Of a stretch of 64,000 nucleotides of DNA, positions 26,147-38,075 are shown in pieces. The position numbers were made by a program, and so were the translations under genes. The notes beneath the pieces were generated by a model that saw only the letters and a program-made list of their open reading frames with translations, was not told where the DNA came from and ran no database searches. The first letter of the stretch is position 1. Every line of letters starts with the position of its first letter. The stretch comes from Herpetosiphon aurantiacus DSM 785 (GTDB lineage: Bacteria; Chloroflexota; Chloroflexia; Chloroflexales; Herpetosiphonaceae): the NCBI GenBank assembly GCA_000018565.1, contig CP000875.1, positions 62,001 through 126,000 of the forward strand, given 5' to 3'.

Positions 26147-26158
26147 GAACAAATGTTC
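26147..26158. promoter_or_regulatory. LexA (SOS) box-like operator upstream of polA
   Basis: GAAC-AAAT-GTTC fits the GAAC-N4-GTTC core of the Gram-positive-type LexA operator (CGAACRNRYGTTYG). Including flanks it matches 13 of 14 positions; only the first C is a T. It directly follows the -10 element of the polA promoter and lies 78 bases before the start codon. Confidence 0.6.
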
Positions 26159-26236
26159 GATAATAAGCACCTAGTATTGCAGCGAAATACTGCTACAATG
26201 CAGGGTGGATGTTGTGTTTCAGGAGGTTTTGATCGT

Positions 26237-29098
26237 ATGCAGCAGCGACCCACGCTCGTCTTGGTTGATGGCCATGCACTGGCATTTCGCGCTTTTTTTG
26301 CGCTTCGCGACACAGGCATGTCGGTTCGCGCCACGGGCGAGCCAACCTATGCCGTGCAAGGCTTTTTATCAATTTTGCTCAACTTGTTACGTGAGCGCCA
26401 ACCAGAGTATGTGGCGGTTTCGTTTGATATTGGTCGAACCTTCCGCGATGATCTGTACCCCGATTATAAGGCTGGCCGCGCTGAAACACCCGCCGATTTC
26501 CACCCCCAACTTGAACGGATCAAGCAAATTATCAATGCTTTGAATATTCCGATCTACACTGCCGAGAACTATGAGGCCGATGATGTGATTGGGACGTTGT
26601 GTCGTCAAGCTGAGGCGCAGGGTGTCGATACCTTGATTATCACAGGCGATACCGACACCCTGCAATTGGTCAACGACTATACCAAGGTGCTGTTGGCCAA
26701 TCCTTATGGCAAGGGCAATGTTTCGCTCTACGATGAAGCTCAAGTGCGCGAACGCTACAAAGGCTTGGCTCCCAACCAACTGGCCGATTTGCGCGGCCTC
26801 AAGGGCGATACCTCCGACAACATTCCTGGGGTCAAGGGCATTGGTGAGGCTGGGGCAATCAGCATGCTCAATGAATGGGGCAGCGTCGAAAATATCTACG
26901 CCAACCTCGATAAAGTCGCCAATCGCTATCGTTCAAAGCTCGATGGCCAGCAAGAAGCCGCGCGATTTAGCACTCACTTAGCAACTATCGTTACTAACGC
27001 CCCGGTAACCTTGGATCTTGAAGCCACCAAAGTGCACGATTATGATCGTGATACGGTCTTGGCCTTGTTCAGCCAGCTTGAATTTCGCAAGTTGGTCGAT
27101 AAGCTGCCACTTTCCAGCCAAGTGAGCGCTGTCCAAGTTGTTGCCATTCCGCAAACGACCAATCCTAACCAATTAACCATGTTCGATGATGCCACGCCCC
27201 CAAGTGCTGAGCCGATCGCTCAATCTGGCGATTATCAAGCGGTGACTACCAGCGAACAATTGGCCGAATTGGTAAGAATTTTGACGGCAGCTGAACGTTT
27301 AATCTTCGATGTGGAAACCAATAGTTTGAATTTGTTCTCGCCTGTGCCCGCCAAGGTTGTCGGCATCGCCCTGACCCATACTGCTGGCTGCGGTTGGTAT
27401 ATTCCATTGGGCCATCGCAGCGGCCAGCAATTGCCGATAGCCGAAGTTGTCGCGGCACTGCAACCATTGTTTAGCGACCCACAAAAAGCTGTGGTAGCGC
27501 ATAATGGCAAGTTTGATATGAGCGCCTTGAGCTTGATTGGGCTTGATGTGCCCCATTTGAGTTTCGATACGGCCATCGCCGCCGCCTTGTTGGGCAAACG
27601 CCAGAGCCTCAAAGATTTGGCCTTTGCCGAATTACGCGATGCCGATGATCGCCCAATTGAGATGACCCGGATCGAAACACTGATCGGTACTGGCAAAAAG
27701 CAAATCACCATGGATCAGGTGGCGATTGAACAAGTAACGCCTTATGCAAGCGCCGATGTTGATATGACGGCGCGTTTATTGGCGCTATTCATGCCGCAAC
27801 TTGGGGCAATTCCGGCGGTACGCGAGGTGTTTGAGCAAATCGAAATGCCGCTTAGCCCTGTGTTGATGCGCATGGAAGCCTGTGGCATTGGGCTTGATCG
27901 GGCGCAATTGGTGCAACAAGGTCAAGTGTTAGGTCAAAGTTTACGCGAAATCGAGCAACATATTGCCGATTTTGTCGGCGAACCACTCAACATTAATTCG
28001 CGCTTCGATTTAAATGATCTGTTGTTTATTCGCTTGAAGTTGCCAACCGCCAATCTCAAGCGTTTGGCTGGTACAACTCGCAGTGGCGGCGCGGTTTACT
28101 CAGTTAACGCTGAAACCTTGGAAGATTTACAAACTCACGATCAAAGCGGGATTGTAGCCATGATTTTGCGCTATCGCCGTTTGTCGAAGCTCAAATCGAC
28201 CTATGTTGATGCCTTGATTGAGTTGATCAACCAGCAAACAGGCCGCGTGCATACCCAATATCGCCAAATTGGCGCGGAAACTGGGCGGCTTAGCTCCGAC
28301 TCACCCAACTTGCAAAATATTCCGGTGCGCAGCGAGGAAGGCCGCGAAATTCGACGGGCTTTTGTTGCGCGGCCAGGCCATGTACTGATGACCGCCGACT
28401 ATTCACAGATTGAACTACGAGTCTTGGCTCATATCACCGCCGATCCAGCCTTAGTCGAAGTGTTTAAAACTGGCCAAGATATTCACGCAGCCACCGCTGC
28501 CCGTTTGTTTGATATTCCCATGGATGAAGTCAGCAAAAATCAGCGGCGGATCGCCAAAATGACGGTCTTTGGTATTATTTACGGCATTAGCAGCTTTGGC
28601 TTGGCCGCTCGCACGGCGCTTTCACGCACCGAAGCCCAACAAATGATCAACGGCTTGTTTGCTCAATACCCAGGCCTGAAGAGCTATATCGAACGAACAT
28701 TGGAGCGAGTTAAGGCAGTTGGCTATGTTGAAACCTTGTTTGGCCGCCGCCGCTACTTCCGCGAATTGCAAGACGGTGGCGTAACTGGGCCTCGCCGTAG
28801 CGCCTTTGAGCGTGAAGCGACCAACGCTGGGATTCAAGGCACAGCCGCCGATTTGATCAAGTTGGCCATGATTCGGCTGGAACAAGCATTAATTGCTGGC
28901 GGCTATCAGGCCAAAATGCTGCTGCAAGTGCATGACGAATTGGTTTTGGAAGTGCCTGAGGATGAGCGTGATGCCGTAGCCCAATTAGTTTGTGATACGA
29001 TGACCCAAGTCTATCCCGATTTGGCCGTGCCATTGGAAGTAAACGTTGAAACTGGGCTGAATTGGGATCAGCTTCAGCGCTGGCATGCCCCAGCCTAG
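26237..29098 (+). CDS. polA: DNA polymerase I
   Basis: This 953-residue protein performs gap filling and primer removal in replication and repair. Domains are an N-terminal 5'-3' exonuclease (LVDGHALAFRAFFA to about 300), a 3'-5' exonuclease (about 360-560) and family A polymerase (to the end). The proofreading motifs look intact: DVETNS, AHNGKFD and YASADVD. Polymerase motif A is DYSQIELRVLAH, the O-helix is RRIAKMTVFGIIYG and motif C is VHDELVLE. AGGAGG 11 bases before ATG 26237 supports this start over an ATG at 26153 inside the SOS-box region. It is followed after 18 bases by a sensor kinase gene. Confidence 0.97.
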   Translation: MQQRPTLVLVDGHALAFRAFFALRDTGMSVRATGEPTYAVQGFLSILLNLLRERQPEYVAVSFDIGRTFRDDLYPDYKAGRAETPADFHPQLERIKQIINALNIPIYTAENYEADDVIGTLCRQAEAQGVDTLIITGDTDTLQLVNDYTKVLLANPYGKGNVSLYDEAQVRERYKGLAPNQLADLRGLKGDTSDNIPGVKGIGEAGAISMLNEWGSVENIYANLDKVANRYRSKLDGQQEAARFSTHLATIVTNAPVTLDLEATKVHDYDRDTVLALFSQLEFRKLVDKLPLSSQVSAVQVVAIPQTTNPNQLTMFDDATPPSAEPIAQSGDYQAVTTSEQLAELVRILTAAERLIFDVETNSLNLFSPVPAKVVGIALTHTAGCGWYIPLGHRSGQQLPIAEVVAALQPLFSDPQKAVVAHNGKFDMSALSLIGLDVPHLSFDTAIAAALLGKRQSLKDLAFAELRDADDRPIEMTRIETLIGTGKKQITMDQVAIEQVTPYASADVDMTARLLALFMPQLGAIPAVREVFEQIEMPLSPVLMRMEACGIGLDRAQLVQQGQVLGQSLREIEQHIADFVGEPLNINSRFDLNDLLFIRLKLPTANLKRLAGTTRSGGAVYSVNAETLEDLQTHDQSGIVAMILRYRRLSKLKSTYVDALIELINQQTGRVHTQYRQIGAETGRLSSDSPNLQNIPVRSEEGREIRRAFVARPGHVLMTADYSQIELRVLAHITADPALVEVFKTGQDIHAATAARLFDIPMDEVSKNQRRIAKMTVFGIIYGISSFGLAARTALSRTEAQQMINGLFAQYPGLKSYIERTLERVKAVGYVETLFGRRRYFRELQDGGVTGPRRSAFEREATNAGIQGTAADLIKLAMIRLEQALIAGGYQAKMLLQVHDELVLEVPEDERDAVAQLVCDTMTQVYPDLAVPLEVNVETGLNWDQLQRWHAPA

Positions 29099-29116
29099 TA
29101 ATTTTAGGAACTCTGC

Positions 29117-31225
29117 ATGACCGAAATGCACGAATTTAGTCAACAGCCGTTAGTCTTGATCGTCGATGATCAATCTTCAAATCGTTCAATTGTGCGGCGT
29201 TATGTTGAAGCGGCGGGTTATCTCGCCGCTGAGGCTGAGCATGGCGTGGCGGCGTTGGATTTTGTGCGTCAAACGCCGCCAGATGCGATCTTGCTCGATA
29301 TTTTTATGCCTGGCATTGATGGAATTGAAGTGCTGAAGACGATTCGTGCCCAGCGCGATCATCATTATATTCCGATTATTGTGGTGACTGCCGCAGCAGA
29401 ATTGGCGGTGCGCCAACAAGCTTATTTTGAGGGAGCCGATGATTTTCTGCTCAAGCCGGTCGATTCGGCGACGCTTCGCGCCCGTTTGCGGGCGGCAATT
29501 CGTTTGAAACATGTGCTTTCGCGGGTTGAGGCCGAGCGCGAACGTTTTGCCCTGATCGCCGATATTACCCGCGATATCACCCAGATTGAGTCGATTTCGG
29601 GCATGCTGGCACATGTGGTCGATGTGAGCACCAAAGCTTTACAGGCCGACCATGGCAATTTGTTTTTGTTGCATGATGTAGCCGATGTTGAAATTCTCAC
29701 AACCGACGATGGCGTTTCGCACAATCTTGATCGAGTAAAACGGGTGGTCAAAGAGGGTGCGGCAGGCTATGCCTTGCGCAGTCGCGAAACCGTGCGGATC
29801 ACCGATGTCCATGAAGATGTGCGTTGGTTGCAGCTTGATCAATCGGCGGCCAGCGTGCGTTCAGCCTTGATTGTGCCAATTGGCGATGCCAGTGGGCCGT
29901 TGGGTGTTTTAGCGGTGTATCATAGCGTGGTTGACCATTTCAGCGCCGATGATCAAGCCTTGCTCGAATTGATTGCCCACCAAATTATTGGGCCAATTCG
30001 CCAAGCCCAAATGCGCGAACAATTGGCGCGTCAAACCCGCCAGTTGCAATTGGTCAATAATCTAGCCCAATCGCTCAGCGCCAATTTGGATCTCGATTCG
30101 CTCTATCGCAGTATTGAGCAAGAGTTGCAACAAATTATGGGGCCAGTTGCAATTGCATGGTATTCATATCGCAATGCAATTATTGATTTGGCCTATACCT
30201 CACAGCAACATGCCTTCTGTATGCCCAACGATCAGCAAAGCCTGCATTTGCTGACCGAACTTGGCACGATTACGCGGGTCTATTCGTGTGTTTTAGGCAC
30301 TGATACCTTAGTGCCAATTACCCAGCAATTGCTCGATGCAGGTTATCAAGGCTGTGCCGCAGTGCCATTGTTGCATCAAGCTCGCCTATTGGGTGTGTTG
30401 ATTATTGCAATCAAGCATCGTCAAATTACCAATGAAGAAGTAGCCTTGCTTGAAATGGCCCGACCGCATTTTGCCGTAGCATTGGCCAATGCCCAAACTG
30501 TGGCCGACCAAGCAGCCCGCCAAACCGAGCAGGCCGAATTGGGCTATTTGCGCAATATGGCCCAACTAGCTGGCCAAATGGCTCATCACTTCAATAATTT
30601 ATTGGCGGTGATTTTGGGCAATACCCAATTGGCCGAGCTTGATGCGATTGACGAAGGCCAGCGTGAATTATTGGCCGAGGTGGTCAAACATGTGCGTGGC
30701 GGCAAAGAGATGGTTCAGCGGATTCATCTGCTCAAAGGCGCTAGCCGGATTAGTCCTGCGCCATTTCCGATTGATCTCAGTGATGCCTTGCCCAGCCTAA
30801 TCGATCAAGCCTTGCAAATTCATCGTTCGGTTGAGCACTTGCAGCTTGAAATTCAGCCGAATTTGCATATTTTATTGCAAGAGCGCGAATTGCTGACCCT
30901 CTGCACCGAACTGCTCAATAATGCCTTGGAATCTGGCTCAAGCCATGCGGGGATTGTGATCAAGGCTTATCAAACTGAGCATGCGACGGTTTTGGCGTTT
31001 CGTGATGCTGGACGTGGTATCCCAGTCGAAGCCTTGGGCGATATTTGGCAACCTTTCTGGACAACCCATGGTCCACAGCGTTTGGGCTTAGGCTTGCCAA
31101 TTTGCGCTGCCGTGATGTGGCGGGCATCTGGCTCGATCAGCTTAATTCCGAATGACCCTGAGCCAGGCATCACCGCGTTGTTGCAATTTCCCTTATTGCC
31201 CAACGAAGCAGCAAATTCGGCCTAG
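29117..31225 (+). CDS. Response-regulator receiver, GAF and histidine kinase hybrid
   Basis: This 702-residue soluble protein starts with an intact receiver domain (VDDQ, phospho-acceptor D61 in LLDIFMPG, K in FLLKPVDS). Two GAF-like domains follow (about 150-300 and 320-465), then a kinase core with the His in MAHHFNNLLAVILGN, the N box (ELLNNALESG), G1 (FRDAGRGIP) and G2 (LGLGLPICAAV). Receiver-first hybrids often relay signals from another kinase. It begins 18 bases after polA, so read-through transcription from polA is possible, but no functional link to repair is implied. Downstream a new promoter starts the next cluster. Confidence 0.87.
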   Translation: MTEMHEFSQQPLVLIVDDQSSNRSIVRRYVEAAGYLAAEAEHGVAALDFVRQTPPDAILLDIFMPGIDGIEVLKTIRAQRDHHYIPIIVVTAAAELAVRQQAYFEGADDFLLKPVDSATLRARLRAAIRLKHVLSRVEAERERFALIADITRDITQIESISGMLAHVVDVSTKALQADHGNLFLLHDVADVEILTTDDGVSHNLDRVKRVVKEGAAGYALRSRETVRITDVHEDVRWLQLDQSAASVRSALIVPIGDASGPLGVLAVYHSVVDHFSADDQALLELIAHQIIGPIRQAQMREQLARQTRQLQLVNNLAQSLSANLDLDSLYRSIEQELQQIMGPVAIAWYSYRNAIIDLAYTSQQHAFCMPNDQQSLHLLTELGTITRVYSCVLGTDTLVPITQQLLDAGYQGCAAVPLLHQARLLGVLIIAIKHRQITNEEVALLEMARPHFAVALANAQTVADQAARQTEQAELGYLRNMAQLAGQMAHHFNNLLAVILGNTQLAELDAIDEGQRELLAEVVKHVRGGKEMVQRIHLLKGASRISPAPFPIDLSDALPSLIDQALQIHRSVEHLQLEIQPNLHILLQERELLTLCTELLNNALESGSSHAGIVIKAYQTEHATVLAFRDAGRGIPVEALGDIWQPFWTTHGPQRLGLGLPICAAVMWRASGSISLIPNDPEPGITALLQFPLLPNEAANSA

Positions 31226-31266
31226 CTTAGCATAATTTTCCTCTATCAGAACCTTGAGGGCTGCGG

Positions 31267-31272
31267 TATAAT
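31267..31272 (+). promoter_or_regulatory. Possible -10 element for the DUF4129-MoxR-DUF58 cluster
   Basis: TATAAT occurs 56 bases before the first gene, in the same GCGGTATAAT context as the uvrC -10. No good -35 is seen. A 7 bp hairpin (AGCGGCG/CGCCGCT, 31277-31300) would lie at the 5' end of the transcript. Confidence 0.45.
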
Positions 31273-31327
31273 AGATAGCGGCGGTGGCATTCACGCCGCT
31301 TCAAAGGTGTTTAAGTAGAGGGTTTTT

Positions 31328-32242
31328 GTGCAGCAGTCTCCATCATCAACACCCACACCCATGACATTTTTTAACTTAATCCGTGAAGCAATCAACCTGC
31401 TTCGGCGCTATTCAGGCTTGTTTATGGGCTTGGCGGCGCTCCAAGTTGGGCCATTTTTGATTGGTAGTTTGTGGTTGCAAGCCAATGGCATTCAAGCACG
31501 GGCGACGGCCCAACTCAATGTGATTATGGCCGAAATGCAACGGCGGATTGATAATGGCCAAACTGGCGATGGCATGTGGGTATTGGATTATCCACGCGCC
31601 GATATTGCGCCCTACTTGTTGGCATTATTTGGCTTTGGCTTTATTTCGATTTTTATCATGCGCAATTTAGCCATGGCGGCAAGTGTGATTGCAGTTGGTG
31701 ATCACTATCGCCAAGCTACACCGCGCTGGGCAAGCGTGGTTTTGAGCAGTTTACGCCGTCTGCCCGCGCTGATTGCTTGGGGTTGTATTTGCGTTTTGGG
31801 CTTAGTTATCGCCCTATTTTTTGCGATTGTGCCAATTTTAGGCACAATTTTAGCCCTAGGCTTGCTTTGGTTTTTTGGGGTGCGTTTGAGCCTTGTGCCG
31901 CAAATTATTGTGGCCGAACAGGTGAACGTATTTCGGGCAATCCATCACTCGTGGATTTTGACCCGTGGCGCATTTGGTCGGATCACCAATATTTGGATTA
32001 CGCTGGTGGTCCTTTTAGCAGTGCTGGCAAGCTATATCACAACCATCATCAGCGCGATTGCCATGGCCTTGTTTGGCGAAACCAGCGCTTTGACGATTGC
32101 CATGACTGAGGGCTTTTCAACCGTTACCTCAATTATGATTCTGCCGATGGCCTATATTGGCTTTACCTTGCTCTATTACGATCAATTGCGACTGGCCTAT
32201 AGCGGCATTCCCACGAACCCAAGCATTACTGCTCAGCAGTAA
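31328..32242 (+). CDS. Multi-pass membrane protein of unknown function
   Basis: This 304-residue protein has about six hydrophobic segments (LFMGLAALQVGPFLIGSLWL, LLALFGFGFISIFIM, LGLVIALFFAIVPILGTILALGLLWF and others). The layout resembles the membrane domain family related to glycerophosphodiester phosphodiesterase membrane parts, but no catalytic domain is present. The start is GTG 31328, with GTAGAGG about 7 bases upstream. It heads a run of five genes in the same direction (DUF4129, DUF4350, MoxR, DUF58), the last of which overlaps its neighbour. A role in membrane integrity or wall-related machinery is a guess. Confidence 0.65.
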   Translation: MQQSPSSTPTPMTFFNLIREAINLLRRYSGLFMGLAALQVGPFLIGSLWLQANGIQARATAQLNVIMAEMQRRIDNGQTGDGMWVLDYPRADIAPYLLALFGFGFISIFIMRNLAMAASVIAVGDHYRQATPRWASVVLSSLRRLPALIAWGCICVLGLVIALFFAIVPILGTILALGLLWFFGVRLSLVPQIIVAEQVNVFRAIHHSWILTRGAFGRITNIWITLVVLLAVLASYITTIISAIAMALFGETSALTIAMTEGFSTVTSIMILPMAYIGFTLLYYDQLRLAYSGIPTNPSITAQQ

Positions 32243-32264
32243 CTAGCCTACTTGAGAGGTTGAG

Positions 32265-33170
32265 ATGGATCGAATTTGGCGAATTACTGCTTGTTTGCTG
32301 CTCTTTGGTTGGTTGTTGGCCCAGCCATTAACGGCTATGGCCCAAGCCAGCGAGGTCAGCGTCAGCGAATATACCCAACTGCTACGCGAAGCCTTTACGG
32401 CAGCTCAACGTAACGATGAAATAGGCCTGCGCGAGGTCAGCGACAAAATCATTGCGCTTAAACAGCTACGAACTGCTGATAATCAAACGCTGGCAGTTAA
32501 TCATCAATGGCTCAAAGATAGCCTTGCGAGTAATACTCCCAATTTGCTGCTGATTCGTGAACGCTTGGCGGCTATGCTCGAAGCCCTGACTGCTGGCCGT
32601 GAAACCGGCCCCCAAGATCTCGAAACCTTGAAGGTTATTCTCAACAATCCACCGTTTGATGCGTTAAATCCCGAACGGAATCAATCAAGGCCAGATTTTG
32701 ATTTTGGCTTTCTAAGCTGGTTGTTTAACGATGGTTTAACTGGCTGCTTTACGATTATTGCACTGGTCTTTGTTGTGGGCCTGCTCGGCTATATTGTCTC
32801 GACGGTGCGCCGCAATAGTGTGAGCGTGGCCCGCCGCAAAGCTCCCGCTGAGGAGCAAAAACTAACCAGTGTCCAAGCAATCGAACGTGCCGATAAAGTC
32901 GCCGCCGAAGAGGGCGATTTTCGCGATGCTGTGCGTTATTTGTACCTTTCAACCTTGTTATGGCTCGAAGAGCGTGGCCTCTTGCGCTATGATCGAACCT
33001 TGACCAACCGTGAGGTATTGGCGGCGGTTCCCAGTAACTCGCCCTTGCATCAACGCTTAGCTCCGGTTGTTCAAACCTTTGATCGGGTCTGGTATGGGAT
33101 TGCCGAAGTCGATCAAGGCACGTTTGATCAATACCGCCAACAAGTGACAACCCTGCGCGAGGTACGCTAA
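32265..33170 (+). CDS. DUF4129 domain membrane protein
   Basis: This 301-residue protein has a signal peptide (LLLFGWLLAQPLTAMAQA), an external helical region, a membrane helix (FTIIALVFVVGLLGYIVSTV) and a C-terminal DUF4129 domain (AVRYLYLSTLLWLEERGLL, RTLTNREVL). The domain often accompanies MoxR/DUF58 and transglutaminase-like genes. Here it follows the membrane gene by 22 bases and is followed by the DUF4350 gene after one base, consistent with an operon. TTGAGAGGTTGAG precedes the ATG. The function is unknown. Confidence 0.82.
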   Translation: MDRIWRITACLLLFGWLLAQPLTAMAQASEVSVSEYTQLLREAFTAAQRNDEIGLREVSDKIIALKQLRTADNQTLAVNHQWLKDSLASNTPNLLLIRERLAAMLEALTAGRETGPQDLETLKVILNNPPFDALNPERNQSRPDFDFGFLSWLFNDGLTGCFTIIALVFVVGLLGYIVSTVRRNSVSVARRKAPAEEQKLTSVQAIERADKVAAEEGDFRDAVRYLYLSTLLWLEERGLLRYDRTLTNREVLAAVPSNSPLHQRLAPVVQTFDRVWYGIAEVDQGTFDQYRQQVTTLREVR

Positions 33171-33171
33171 G

Positions 33172-34338
33172 ATGAATAGTAAAGTGAAATTTTTCGCGAT
33201 TTTCATTGGCATCGTCGCGTTGTCATTTTTCTTATTTCGCTCCTGCGATCCTCAAGCGCGTAACCTGCGGCCTGGCTCGATGTACAACCAAGGTGGCGAC
33301 GGAACTGCCGCTTTGCAGCTTTGGCTGAGCAAAATTGGCTATCAAACTGAGTCATTTGAATATCGCGATTTCGATGAGCTTGACCAAACAATCGATACTT
33401 TGCTTGTAATCAAGCCAAGCGATACTAATAATTGGCGCAAGGAAGAAATTGATGCGGTTTTAGCGTGGGTTGAAGATACCGGCGGCACGCTGATTGTCGC
33501 TGATGATCAACAAAATGGCCTTTTGACCCGCTTGGATCTGACGGTCACCCGCATCGAAGCCTTGGAAATGGTCAGCACCAGTGATACCAGTCATGCTTTG
33601 GTGAACCCGATAGTAAACGGTTTGCAAGGCTATCAAACAATTAGCTATTTTGAGCGAGTGAGACCCAATAGCCAAGTGATTGTTGGTAGCGAAGCACAGC
33701 CGACGACGCTTGGCATTAGTCGTGGCCGTGGGATGATCTATGCTTCAACCAATATTTGGCTCTTTACCAATGCTGGTTTGTTTTATGAAAGCAATGCCAA
33801 AATTATCCTTAATATGGTTAATCGGATGCCCGCAGGCAGTGTAATTGCCTTTGATGAGGTACATCATGGCCGTGCCTTACCACCCAAAGCCGCTCCTGTG
33901 CCAGCCCAACCCTATTCGCCTTTGGTTGCGGCGATGGTCTATAGCGCAATGGTTGTGGGCTTATGGGCCTTGCTTTCTGGTCGCCGTTTTGGTCAGATTG
34001 TGCCCAGCAGAATCGATTTGATGCGACGGAATAGCAGCGAATATGTCCAATCGATGGCCAATTTGTTTCAGCGCGGTCGTCAAGCCGAACATATGCAAGC
34101 CCACTATAAAACCTATCTCAAACGCCGAGTTGCTAAGCCCTATGGGATTAACCCCAAGCTTGATGACCAGAGCTTTTTAAGTGAAGTTCAGCGGTATTCC
34201 GATACAATCGATCGTAATCACTTAGCTCATTTGCTCAACCATTTAAGCCAGCCCAACCCCAGCGAGGCGACGATCTTGGCCCTGGTCAACGATATCGATC
34301 GCTTTATCAACCTATGGGAACAACAGGGTCGGGCCTAA
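33172..34338 (+). CDS. DUF4350 domain protein
   Basis: This 388-residue protein has an N-terminal membrane anchor ([16 protein letters not shown]), then a DUF4350/GldG-like domain ([35 protein letters not shown]), a second helix at about 255-275 ([20 protein letters not shown]) and a cytoplasmic tail. DUF4350 resembles the ligand-binding part of ABC-associated GldG-type proteins and is commonly found with MoxR and DUF58. It starts one base after the DUF4129 stop. The next gene has its own GGAGGA site 65 bases on. Confidence 0.8.
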
Positions 34339-34403
34339 ACCCGCGCTTTTTGCCTTTGCTACGGGCATCGTGCGGTGCTCGTGAGAATGATATTGGAGGA
34401 TCA

Positions 34404-35351
34404 ATGCTCGTCAAACAACTTGCCGATTATATGCGCCAAGAGGCCGCTAAAGTTATTGTTGGTCAAGAAGATACCTGGACACAATTGGTGGTTGCGCTGC
34501 TAAGTGGCGGCCACGTGTTGCTCGAAGGTGTGCCTGGTACAGCCAAAACCTTGATGGCCAAAACCTTGGCCCATTTGGTGCAGGCCGAGTTTAAGCGGGT
34601 GCAATTTACCCCCGACTTGATGCCCTCGGATGTGATGGGTACCAGCGTCTATGAGATGCAAACCAGCCAATTTCGGCTACGCAAAGGCCCAATCTTCACC
34701 CAAATTTTGCTGGGCGATGAAATTAACCGCGCTCCAGCCAAAACCCAAGCAGCCTTGCTCGAAGCCATGGAAGAACAACAGGTGACGATCGATGGCGATA
34801 CGATGCCCTTGCCACAGCCATTTTTTGTGATTGCCACCCAAAATCCCATGGAATACGAAGGCACCTATCCGCTGCCCGAAGCGCAACTCGACCGCTTTTT
34901 GTTCAAAGTTTTGGTTGGCTATAGCCCACCTGAAATTGAGTTTGAAGTATTACGGCGCTATAACCAAGGCTTCAGTGCTCGCAACCTGAGCACCGCCAAT
35001 TTGCAGCCAACCGTCACGCCCGAAACGATTATGCGTTGCCGCGAGGAAATTGGCCGCCTACGCGTCGAAGATGGCGTGATTAACTATATCAATGCGATTG
35101 CCCAAGAATCACGACGCTCGCCGGATTTGGTGTTAGGTGGCTCACCACGGGCCTCGATTGCCCTGTTACTGACCGCCAAAACCTTTGCGGCAATGCAAGG
35201 ACGCGAGTATGTCGTGCCCGATGATGTTAAATTCTTGGCGCGGCCAGTTTATCGCCATCGGATTATTTTGAAACCAGAGGCTGAGATTGAAGGTTTGACC
35301 CCAGATACCGCGATGACCCGGATTTTGGGGCGTATTGAGGTTCCTCGCTGA
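34404..35351 (+). CDS. MoxR family AAA+ ATPase
   Basis: This 315-residue AAA+ ATPase has Walker [11 protein letters not shown], Walker [13 protein letters not shown], and the sensor I segment [26 protein letters not shown], as in the MoxR branch. These ATPases work with VWA proteins to insert cofactors or remodel complexes. It lies 65 bases after the DUF4350 gene and overlaps the DUF58 gene by one base (TGATG). GGAGGA supports ATG 34404. DUF58 is likely its VWA-type partner. This cluster differs from the CoxE-like VWA gene at 267-1649, which has no neighbouring MoxR. Confidence 0.9.
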
Positions 35352-36661
35352 TGATTCCATCGCGCCGTTTATTAGCACTTTTGCTAGCAGGCTTGGTTCC
35401 GGTGATCATCGGAGCAGCAACCCCCAGTTTGCGCTGGACAATCTGGGTTTATGTATTGTTGCTGATTGGCTTTGTGGCGCTTGATTGGTTTATGACTCCC
35501 AAGCCTAAATTGTTGGAAGTAGCGCGGATCAACGAGCCAAAACTTTCAATTGGCGAACAAAACCTGATCACGCTGGCAGTGCATAATCAAAGCCCGCGCA
35601 CGCTCGAAATTCAAATTCGTGATGAGTTTCCGGTGGAGTTTCCCAGCGATACGCTGATTCTTAAAACCAAGGTCGAGCCAGATACGGTGCAAGAGGTTAA
35701 CTACCATGTACGGCCCTTGCGGCGTGGTGATTATCGCTTTGGCAATATCAATTTGCGCTATACCAGCACCTTTGGTACGTTCTTGCGCCAAACCAAAATC
35801 GCCTTCGACGAATTGGTCAAGGTTTATCCCAATGTGCTTGATGTGCGCAAATACGATATGTTGGCGCGGAAGGGCATGCTGTTTGAGTTGGGGTTGCGCA
35901 CCGCCCGCGTGTTTGGCTCAGGTACCGAGTTTGAGCGCTTGCGTGAATATACGCCCGATGATGAGTTTCGCTCGATTAACTGGAAGGCCAGCGCTCGCCG
36001 TAACAAGCTGATTGCTGCCGAATATGAGACCGAGCGTTCGCAGTATGTAGTGTCGGTGATCGACACTGGGCGTTTGATGCGCCCAACAATCAACGATATC
36101 GCCAAGCTGGATTATGCGATCAATGCCTCGTTAATGCTGGGGTATGTGGCGATGCTCAAAGGCGATCACATCGGCATGCTTTCGTTTGCCGACCATGTTG
36201 GGCGTTTTTTGCAGCCGCGCCGTGGTAAAGCCCAGTTTTATCAAATGTTGGAGATGTTGTATAACTTGCCATCGCAGCCCGTCGAGGCCGATTATGGCCG
36301 CGCGATCTCCTACTTGGGCTTGAAGAATAAGCGCCGTTCGTTAATTGTGATTTTTACCGACCTCAGCACCATGGATACCGCCAAGCCGCTGATTCAGCAT
36401 ATGGCACGCTTGGCCAAAACCCACCTCGCCTTGTGTGTGGTGATGAGCGACCCCAACTTAGTCGGCTATGCTGGCAAAGCGGCCTATAGTTCCACCGATG
36501 TGTATGAACGCGCCGTGGCCGAGATGGTGCTTGATGAACGGCGGGTAGTGCTCGACACGCTGAATCAAGCTGGCGTACATACGATCGACGTGCCAGCCAA
36601 CAAACTAACGGTTTCGGTGATTAATAAATATCTGGAGTTCAAAGGGCGAGGGCTTATTTAA
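35351..36661 (+). CDS. DUF58 domain protein (VWA-like)
   Basis: This 436-residue protein has two N-terminal membrane segments (LLALLLAGLVPVIIGAATP, VYVLLLIGFVALDWF), a beta-rich middle, and the DUF58 motif LREYTPDDEFRSINWKASARRN. A VWA-like fold follows (VVSVIDTGRLM and IVIFTDLSTM). It partners MoxR in many bacteria. It overlaps the moxR stop by one base, showing coupling. The D-x-G-R form in VSVIDTGR is a degenerate metal site. A 9 bp hairpin follows at 36669-36692. Confidence 0.88.
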   Translation: MIPSRRLLALLLAGLVPVIIGAATPSLRWTIWVYVLLLIGFVALDWFMTPKPKLLEVARINEPKLSIGEQNLITLAVHNQSPRTLEIQIRDEFPVEFPSDTLILKTKVEPDTVQEVNYHVRPLRRGDYRFGNINLRYTSTFGTFLRQTKIAFDELVKVYPNVLDVRKYDMLARKGMLFELGLRTARVFGSGTEFERLREYTPDDEFRSINWKASARRNKLIAAEYETERSQYVVSVIDTGRLMRPTINDIAKLDYAINASLMLGYVAMLKGDHIGMLSFADHVGRFLQPRRGKAQFYQMLEMLYNLPSQPVEADYGRAISYLGLKNKRRSLIVIFTDLSTMDTAKPLIQHMARLAKTHLALCVVMSDPNLVGYAGKAAYSSTDVYERAVAEMVLDERRVVLDTLNQAGVHTIDVPANKLTVSVINKYLEFKGRGLI

Positions 36662-36668
36662 CCGCCAA

Positions 36669-36692
36669 TCACGGGGCTACTCTGCCCCGTGA
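36669..36692. terminator. Hairpin shared by converging genes
   Basis: TCACGGGGC and GCCCCGTGA form a perfect 9 bp stem with a 6-base loop. It lies 8 bases past the DUF58 stop and 10 bases past the stop of the small minus-strand gene, so it could serve both. No strong T-run is present. Confidence 0.55.
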
Positions 36693-36701
36693 CGGCGTGG
36701 T

Positions 36702-36818
36702 TCATAATAGAATCAGCACCAGAATAAACATGCTGACTACGCCTCCGAGGGCAATCCCGAGAGCGATGCCTGCTGCGATACTCATGACACGGCGTAGTGG
36801 TGTTGGTGTGGCTTTCAC
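36702..36818 (-). CDS. 38-residue single-pass membrane peptide
   Basis: A 39-codon frame encodes a short basic N-terminus (MKATPTPLRRVM) and a single hydrophobic helix that continues to the C-terminus (GIALGIALGGVV, MFILVLILL). A perfect AGGAGG lies 7 bases before the GTG start, which is among the best ribosome-binding sites in the window. It is 83 bases downstream of the Tat-exported phosphoesterase on the same strand and may share its transcript. It resembles no protein I can name. The alternating small residues and Gly-x3-Gly spacing suggest helix packing in the membrane. Confidence 0.6.
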   Translation of the reverse strand: MKATPTPLRRVMSIAAGIALGIALGGVVSMFILVLILL

Positions 36819-36900
36819 CTGCAATCCTCCTAATGTGGTTATGCCCTATGGCCCTAGAATACCACAGTTTGGCCATGAATCGGCTGATACTCATCTGAGC

Positions 36901-37794
36901 TTAAGCACACGCTAAGCTGAGCATGACGATTTCAGGCCGACAGCCAAAGCGTACTTGTGGCCAGCTACAGCCCAAACCCCACGAGGTAAATTGCACCATC
37001 GATCCTACATCATAGCGATGGTCGGGGTAACGCATGCCCAAGTAGGGCAGTAGCAATGCGCCTTTGACTGGCACACGCACTTGGCCGCCATGGGCATGGC
37101 CCGAAAGCTGTAAATCAAAACGATTGTAGCTAGCAGTGAAATCGGCGGTATCAGGCTCATGCACCAAGATAATTGCTGCATCAGTCTTGGGCAATTCAGC
37201 AACCAAACGATCAAGCACTGGTTTCATGGTGCTGGGGTCGTTGGGGCCAATCGGGTTGGGCCAAAGATCGTCGTGGCCAGCCAAATGCAACTTGCTCGAA
37301 CCACGATTCAGGCTGATCGCACGATTGGTAAGATCGGTGATGCCAGTTGTTCGCAGTACTTGACGCACGGTCTCGCCATTGCCATCGCCCCAATAATCGT
37401 GGTTGCCCAAAACGCCCACCACCCCATCGGGTGCTTCGAGCATCGCCAAGCCAGCCGCTAAATCTTCGGTAAAACGACTCGGGTCATGGGTAATGAAATC
37501 GCCTGAGATCGCGATTAAATCTGGTTTTTGGGCGTTGACCATGCGCACGGTGGTCAGCCAATGTTCACGAGTCATCAAAACATCGTCAATATGAATATCG
37601 CTCAAATGGGCGATGCGATAACCATCGTAAGCGCTGGCCAAGCGCGGCAAAACGATCGTTTCTTCGTGGATGCTCAGCCATTCGGCCTCAACTTGAAACC
37701 CATATGCGGCGGCTCCTAGCGTCGTGGCGGTCGTCGCCAAGGCCGAATAGCCCATTATTTTCAGAAAACTACGGCGTGAAAGTGCTGCTGCCAT
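36901..37794 (-). CDS. Tat-exported metallophosphoesterase (YkuE-like)
   Basis: This 297-residue protein begins with a twin-arginine signal (SRRSFLKIMGYSALATTATTL). Calcineurin-type motifs follow: HLSDIHIDD, SGDFITHD, GNHDYWG, LVHEPD and LSGHAHGGQ. It is probably a membrane-anchored or exported phosphoesterase of the YkuE/PMMH group, acting on lipid or nucleotide phosphates; the substrate is not determined. TAGGAGG about 7 bases before the ATG at 37794 supports the start. A 38-residue membrane peptide gene follows it by 83 bases on the same strand. Confidence 0.87.
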   Translation of the reverse strand: MAAALSRRSFLKIMGYSALATTATTLGAAAYGFQVEAEWLSIHEETIVLPRLASAYDGYRIAHLSDIHIDDVLMTREHWLTTVRMVNAQKPDLIAISGDFITHDPSRFTEDLAAGLAMLEAPDGVVGVLGNHDYWGDGNGETVRQVLRTTGITDLTNRAISLNRGSSKLHLAGHDDLWPNPIGPNDPSTMKPVLDRLVAELPKTDAAIILVHEPDTADFTASYNRFDLQLSGHAHGGQVRVPVKGALLLPYLGMRYPDHRYDVGSMVQFTSWGLGCSWPQVRFGCRPEIVMLSLACA

Positions 37795-37833
37795 GTCAAC
37801 CTCCTACAATCTGGTTTATGCCTAAGTGTAATG

Positions 37834-37876
37834 CCCTCACCCCCGACCCCTCTCCCACTGCTGCGGGCGAGGGGGC
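37834..37876. repeat. CCCTCACCCC repeat, one-arm copy
   Basis: Only the left half is present: CCCTCACCCCCGACCCCTCT, then CCCACTGCTGCGGGCGAGGGG. No GGGGTGAGGG right end follows within 100 bases. Confidence 0.65.
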
Positions 37877-37894
37877 TAGCTTACAAGGGTCGGT

Positions 37895-38075
37895 TTTCGC
37901 TGCGAACCACGGATCTTGTGGTTCATCGGTGGATGGATGATGACCACTCATTGTGCTTGAGGGGGTGCAGGGGGATTAAAGCCCCCTGCGTCTCCCGCCT
38001 TGAGGCGGGACGGAAGGGTGGTGATCATCCATGATTGTTAAAAACCTACCCTTGTAAGGAGGGTGCAAGCGGGAT
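37895..38075. repeat. Two-hairpin repeat, copy 1
   Basis: This block shares a long segment with 43728-43910: GGATCTTG(T/A)GGTT, GAGGGGGTGCAGGGGGATTA, then CTCCCGCCTTGAGGCGGGAC. CAGGGG/CCCCTG and CCCGCC/GGCGGG form two successive hairpins. The tail ATTGTTAAAAACCTACCC also follows some CCCTCACCCC copies. Confidence 0.75.

What the first reader, a model, noticed from the sequence alone, without database searches (positions are those of the whole stretch)
36702..36818. Unannotated 38-residue membrane peptide with a perfect ribosome-binding site
The gene is too short for usual gene finding. It has AGGAGG 7 bases before a GTG and encodes a basic start plus one hydrophobic helix with Gly-x3-Gly-like packing. 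It is downstream of a Tat-exported phosphoesterase on the same strand and is followed by a shared hairpin. Small membrane peptides often modulate a neighbouring membrane protein.
Basis: partly seen in the sequence, partly recalled or inferred. Interest (0 to 1): 0.55.

Follow-up and report, generated by a model that had tools for sequence, protein, structure and literature searches.

The report
A conserved, unnamed 38-residue membrane peptide
This is a real but tiny gene that makes a single membrane-spanning helix of 38 residues; it is kept in Herpetosiphon and one related genus, has its own control signals, matches no known family, and its job is still unknown.

Summary
On the minus strand, 36818-36702 encodes 38 residues from a GTG, with AGGAGG 7 nt upstream.

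The frame, GTG and AGGAGG are invariant in 6 of 6 genomes of the genus. A same-family MAG (G008) has a 38-residue, GTG-started homologue (45% identity; non-circular profile E 2.2e-6).

In G008 the peptide lies beside DUF58, on the other relative strand, and the phosphoesterase is on another contig. The gene has its own conserved upstream control block, so it looks like an independent transcription unit.

It is absent from the other genomes searched in the class and a phylum sample, and has no Pfam, NCBIfam, PHROG or PDB match. The best reading is an N-in, C-out single helix that packs through a small-residue face against itself or a larger membrane protein; the partner is unknown.

Unexpectedly, silent sites diverge less than in neighbouring genes. 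Codon bias and a conserved RNA fold do not explain this, so a dual-function RNA stays open.

The parts
36702..36818 (-). 38-codon small gene (GTG start 36818-36816, TGA stop 36704-36702): single-helix membrane peptide
36826..36831 (-). Shine-Dalgarno AGGAGG, 7 nt before the GTG; invariant in 6 of 6 genus genomes, AGGAG in G008
36854..36867 (-). CTGTGGTATTCTAG, core of the upstream block shared with G008; contains an extended -10-like TGGTATTCT (36864-36856). Read as the peptide's own promoter; the role is inferred
36878..36879 (-). Junction at which the window lacks an 11-bp element (TTTTGAGCAAG) that the other 5 genus genomes carry (first base varies in G004), and that G008 also has at the same spacing
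36669..36692 (.). 9-bp hairpin between the convergent peptide gene and DUF58; probable shared mRNA 3' end, no T-run
35351..36661 (+). DUF58 protein, last gene of a GPDPase_memb-like/DUF4129/DUF4350/MoxR/DUF58 run; the neighbour kept in G008
36901..37794 (-). Twin-arginine Metallophos phosphoesterase, best (sub-threshold) NCBIfam match YaeI; upstream neighbour in the genus only

Best explanation
The locus is a genuine, independently transcribed small gene specific to Herpetosiphon and at least one other genus of its family. Its 38-residue product is inserted N-in/C-out as one transmembrane helix: a basic cytoplasmic start (K2, R9, R10) and a helix from about residue 8 to 37. The helix carries small residues every fourth position (13, 17, 21, 25, 29), which most likely let it pack closely against itself or against the helix of a larger membrane protein, acting as an accessory subunit or modulator. 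Shown: conserved frame, start, RBS, upstream block and purifying selection on the protein. Predicted: helix and topology. Inferred: translation, membrane insertion, partner binding. The partner is unknown; the DUF58 neighbour is a better lead than the phosphoesterase, but a weak one.
For: 6 of 6 genus genomes carry it once at the same place with invariant GTG and AGGAGG. G008 homologue: exactly 38 residues, GTG start, 17 of 38 identical, E 5.1e-6 with the single peptide and 2.2e-6 with a profile that excludes G008. Differences from G008 fall 18/7/29 on codon positions 1/2/3 of 54; five other frames of the same block have stops or lower identity. dN/dS 0.12-0.37 for within-genus pairs that have nonsynonymous changes. 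Upstream block aligns with G008 at score 58; 0 of 2000 shuffles reach it, max 29. AlphaFold2: one helix 8-37, mean pLDDT 88.6. Small residues at i, i+4 over five positions in both genera: 0.0135 of column shuffles (chosen after looking).
Against: No transcript, ribosome-profiling or peptide data. Only one genome outside the genus has it, a 76%-complete MAG. Two other same-family genomes lack it after DUF58 (G007 100% complete, G006 75%). The ladder test is post hoc, and neither conservation (p 0.76) nor small residues (p 0.90) showed a helical-moment bias. No partner is identified.
Confidence: 0.55

Rival explanations
1. Dual-function RNA: a roughly 190-nt transcript that both encodes the peptide and base-pairs with target mRNAs, in the manner of SgrS/SgrT or VcdRP.
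For: Silent sites diverge less than in five neighbouring genes: 0.032, 0.242 and 0.176 per site against G003, G002 and G005, a level reached by 0, 24 and 0 of 1655 overlapping 37-codon windows, the 24 all in MoxR. The leader shows only 1-4 differences in 54 columns. Codon usage is not that of highly expressed genes, so codon bias is a poor explanation.
Against: No conserved fold: 0 of 48 predicted pairs with a two-sided change; whole-transcript z is only -1.9. No Rfam match. Against G008 third positions are saturated, so any nucleotide constraint is genus-level. rpsL, rpsG and fusA have equally low silent divergence. No target was sought.
Confidence: 0.12
2. Self-sufficient membrane-acting peptide (stress-induced small membrane protein like YohP, or a type I toxin-like helix) that works by oligomerising or altering membrane potential, with no dedicated partner.
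For: Size, single helix and G-x3-G-x3-G spacing fit; own upstream control block. YohP (27 aa) lowers membrane potential and raises cardiolipin (PMC12719787, abstract read).
Against: Single copy at a fixed locus under purifying selection. The start region is not strongly folded (z +0.57) and the promoter scan found no promoter-like site on either strand, against a type I toxin design. No expression data.
Confidence: 0.18
3. Modulator of the adjacent phosphoesterase.
For: Same strand, 82-93 nt apart in 6 of 6 genus genomes, so read-through co-transcription is possible.
Against: Pairing is not kept in G008 or G007. A conserved upstream block lies between the two genes.
Confidence: 0.08
4. Spurious ORF in a conserved non-coding stretch.
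For: Whole block is conserved in the genus, silent sites included.
Against: Codon-position pattern and 38-residue, GTG-started homologue in G008; RBS kept.
Confidence: 0.04

Closest known systems
AcrZ-type small membrane proteins (E. coli AcrZ binding AcrB; PMC7267776, seen in search listing)
   Same: Single short helix; working model of binding a larger membrane protein
   Different: No sequence match in PDB, Pfam or NCBIfam; partner unknown
YohP (E. coli, 27 aa; PMC12719787, abstract read)
   Same: Short single-helix membrane peptide in a non-operon setting (YohP setting recalled)
   Different: Longer, two-genus distribution, no link to stress known
Dual-function RNAs SgrS/SgrT and VcdRP/VcdP (PMC4021124, PMC8672173; search listing only)
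   Same: Short transcript with own control region, small ORF and 3' hairpin; slow nucleotide change
   Different: No regulatory pairing shown; no conserved RNA fold
Type I toxins (review PMC8309996; search listing only)
   Same: Short hydrophobic helix
   Different: No sign of sequestered start or antisense promoter; single fixed locus

Membership tests
Prokaryotic small membrane proteins (kind, not a homology family; criteria of PMC10903887) | ORF of 60-180 nt with one membrane helix of 15-30 residues | tested here: met
   117-nt ORF; hydropathy and AF2 helix. Helix predicted, insertion not shown; AF2 helix is 30 residues
Prokaryotic small membrane proteins (kind, not a homology family; criteria of PMC10903887) | Conserved outside its own species | tested here: met
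   6 of 6 genus genomes plus G008. That paper's default of 30 BLAST hits would not be reached
AcrZ-type partner-binding small protein | Physical binding to a specific membrane protein | not testable with these tools
   none
Any named Pfam/NCBIfam/PHROG family | Profile match at the curated cut-off or significant E-value | tested here: not met
   0 significant matches for either the window peptide or the G008 homologue
Dual-function RNA | Conserved regulatory RNA structure or pairing region | tested here: inconclusive
   No covariation, but silent sites slow; targets not sought
Type I toxin | Antisense RNA or sequestered start region | tested here: inconclusive
   Simple promoter scan and folding show neither, but the scan is crude and also missed the inferred promoter

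The most novel reading that the evidence does not exclude
The locus is a family-specific dual-function RNA: a short independent transcript whose nucleotide sequence, not only its peptide, is under selection within Herpetosiphon, so that it acts both as a membrane peptide and as a base-pairing regulator in a phylum where I know of no such example (recall only).
Probability: 0.12. Interest if true: 0.55.

Novelty: new member of a known kind. Interest (0 to 1): 0.33.

Why it matters
It shows that a short frame picked by eye is a genuine gene, and gives Herpetosiphonaceae a new small membrane protein family with defined start, RBS and control region. If the slow silent sites reflect a second, RNA-level role, it would be a tractable dual-function locus in a poorly studied phylum. 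Without a partner or phenotype the biological stake remains modest: small membrane proteins without known function are common.

Tried and rejected
Rejected: (1) Phosphoesterase partnership as the conserved context, by synteny. (2) A homologue in G334 (E 3.8e-4): it lies in another frame inside a 661-aa ORF, so chance. (3) The other class-level profile hits (E 0.001 and above): mostly parts of longer open frames; listed rows were judged by frame length and E-value, not fetched one by one. (4) High expression as the cause of slow silent sites: silent divergence resembles rpsL, rpsG and fusA, but codon usage does not (mean log ratio -0.295; 0 of 90 ribosomal/fusA windows as low, 712 of 950 background windows higher). 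In one search four of the seven ORFs pooled for G003 (three of six for G002 and G005) are opposite-strand or other-frame readings of the same region, so I use only its per-gene values for rpsL, fusA and rpsG, not its pooled window counts. (5) A conserved RNA fold: a long helix in the window's own fold is broken in G002 and G004 by substitutions seen, and 0 of 48 alifold pairs covary. (6) Longer or opposite-strand reading frames over the same bases: indels upstream break the 78-aa minus-strand frame in relatives; stops or low identity elsewhere, though one opposite-strand frame is open in both genomes at 13 of 37 identical. (7) Phage origin: no relative in viral contigs. (8) Repetition of the upstream block elsewhere: the full gapped pattern is found once in G001 and 0 times in G000; core with 2 mismatches no more often than the reversed control (12 v 9). 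(9) Literature: searches on Herpetosiphon small proteins, small membrane proteins with glycine zippers, MoxR/DUF58 in Chloroflexi and Herpetosiphon transcriptomes gave nothing on this locus (listings only).

Limits: the slow-silent-site test used 3 of the 5 other genus genomes (G003, G002, G005), those for which the wider region had been fetched, and overlapping windows. Public annotation of this exact locus could not be read, so 'unannotated' is untested.

Full report
What is there. The interval is coding on the minus strand only: GTG 36818-36816 to TGA 36704-36702, 38 codons, with AGGAGG at 36831-36826. It sits between a convergent DUF58 gene (35351-36661, plus) and a phosphoesterase on its own strand (36901-37794; Pfam Metallophos 1.8e-12; closest NCBIfam model YaeI, 122 bits against a cut-off of 188). 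A 9-bp hairpin (36669-36692) separates it from DUF58 (z about -5); it lacks a T-run and the terminator scan did not list it.

Is it more than chance? AGGAGG followed by a start codon at 4-9 nt occurs three times in the window on both strands: a 128-aa ORF, this one, and the phosphoesterase. In 20 Markov sequences of 64 kb, AGGAGG-led ORFs of 30-60 aa averaged 1.05, but none had a membrane-grade helix. The stronger evidence is comparative.

Conservation. The peptide was found in 6 of 6 genus genomes (G000-G005) at the same place, and in G008 of the same family at E 5.1e-6; the remaining 34 of the 41 genomes examined gave nothing at E below 0.14. GTG and AGGAGG are invariant in the genus. The G008 frame has exactly 38 codons, a GTG start and AGGAG 7 nt upstream. 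A profile without G008 still finds it at 2.2e-6; the 2.3e-19 is circular because G008 is in that profile. Among 158 genomes of the class and 400 drawn from the phylum (G008 is not among the hits there) no further convincing relative appeared. The genome-contig scan returned 4 loci, three Herpetosiphon species and the MAG 'Herpetosiphonaceae bacterium isolate MGR_bin20'. G006 and G007, same family, have DUF58 but no peptide gene after it.

Selection. Within the genus 14 of 117 sites vary, 1 of them at codon position 2; against G008, 54 sites differ, split 18/7/29 over codon positions 1/2/3. Nei-Gojobori dN/dS is 0.12-0.37 for within-genus pairs with nonsynonymous changes; against G008 dS is saturated.

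Context. In all 6 genus genomes the order is phosphoesterase, 82-93 nt, peptide gene, hairpin, convergent DUF58. In G008 the peptide gene is downstream of DUF58 on the same strand, with separate hairpins after each gene, while the phosphoesterase relative is on another contig with an unrelated ORF after it (that gene lies at a contig end, and the MAG is 76% complete). So the DUF58 side is kept, with a flip, and the phosphoesterase side is not. With one out-group genome this is a lead, not a rule.

Control region. A block upstream of the RBS aligns between G001 and G008 from ATTTTGAGCAA through TGGTATnCTAG to AGGAG; score 58 against a shuffle maximum of 29 (0 of 2000). It contains an extended -10-like TGGTATTCT, but no standard sigma-70 pair was found by the scan, so calling it a promoter is inference. 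The window's own genome lacks an 11-bp element (TTTTGAGCAAG) at 36878/36879 that the five other genus genomes have and G008 shares; with it missing the G000-G008 score falls to 38. The block's full pattern occurs once in G001 and not in G000, so there is no sign of a regulon.

Protein. AlphaFold2 gives one helix, residues 8-37, mean pLDDT 88.6, from 7 sequences. The charge distribution predicts N-in (positive-inside rule, recall). Small residues stand at 13, 17, 21, 25 and 29 in both genera; 1.35% of column shuffles do as well, but the test was chosen after seeing the pattern, and helical-moment tests of conservation and of small residues were not significant. No fold search was run: a lone helix would match anything.

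An unexpected result. Silent sites of the gene differ at 0.032, 0.242 and 0.176 per site between G000 and G003, G002 and G005, whereas five neighbouring genes give 0.22-0.66. Only 0, 24 and 0 of 1655 overlapping 37-codon windows are that low (3 of 5 possible genus genomes used). rpsL, rpsG and fusA have similar silent divergence: 0.047/0.134/0.076 for G003, 0.114/0.175/0.183 for G002, 0.114/0.192/0.172 for G005. But the peptide gene does not use their codons: mean log ratio -0.295, against 0.137 for 90 leave-one-out windows of those genes (0 as low) and -0.208 for 950 background windows. High expression is therefore a poor explanation, within the limits of 37 codons and three reference genes. 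A conserved RNA fold is not seen either (0 of 48 pairs covary; whole-transcript z -1.9). The variable flanks on both sides argue against a simple mutation cold spot; exchange between species was not tested. I leave the cause open; a dual-function RNA is the boldest reading the data allow.

How it most likely works. An N-in/C-out helix that packs through its small-residue face against itself or a membrane protein partner. Membrane insertion, partner and phenotype are inferred. Papers used for comparison: PMC10903887 (abstract and passages) states that small ORFs under 60 residues are often overlooked and that many encode single-helix membrane proteins; PMC12719787 (abstract). The others named were seen in search listings only.

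Verdict.

Noticed in passing
window 36878-36879 (minus strand): The window's genome lacks an 11-bp upstream element that 5 of 5 other genus genomes keep and the G008 MAG shares; expression of the gene may differ in this strain.
   Followed up: partly
window 36702-36818: Silent sites diverge far less than in neighbouring genes although codon usage is not of the highly expressed type.
   Followed up: partly
window 37830-38060: Spacer between the phosphoesterase and the THUMP-like methyltransferase gene is full of C-rich and inverted-repeat stretches that look like a dispersed repeat element.
   Followed up: no
window 26153-36661; L041: The run polA, response regulator, GPDPase_memb-like protein, DUF4129, DUF4350, MoxR, DUF58 is kept in the G008 MAG, with a kinase-like ORF (6364-7824 of L041) inserted; family of the insert not tested.
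   Followed up: no
L074 (G006:C10:57438-58762): The DUF58 gene of G006 reads in several frames with stops, either broken or a poor assembly.
   Followed up: no
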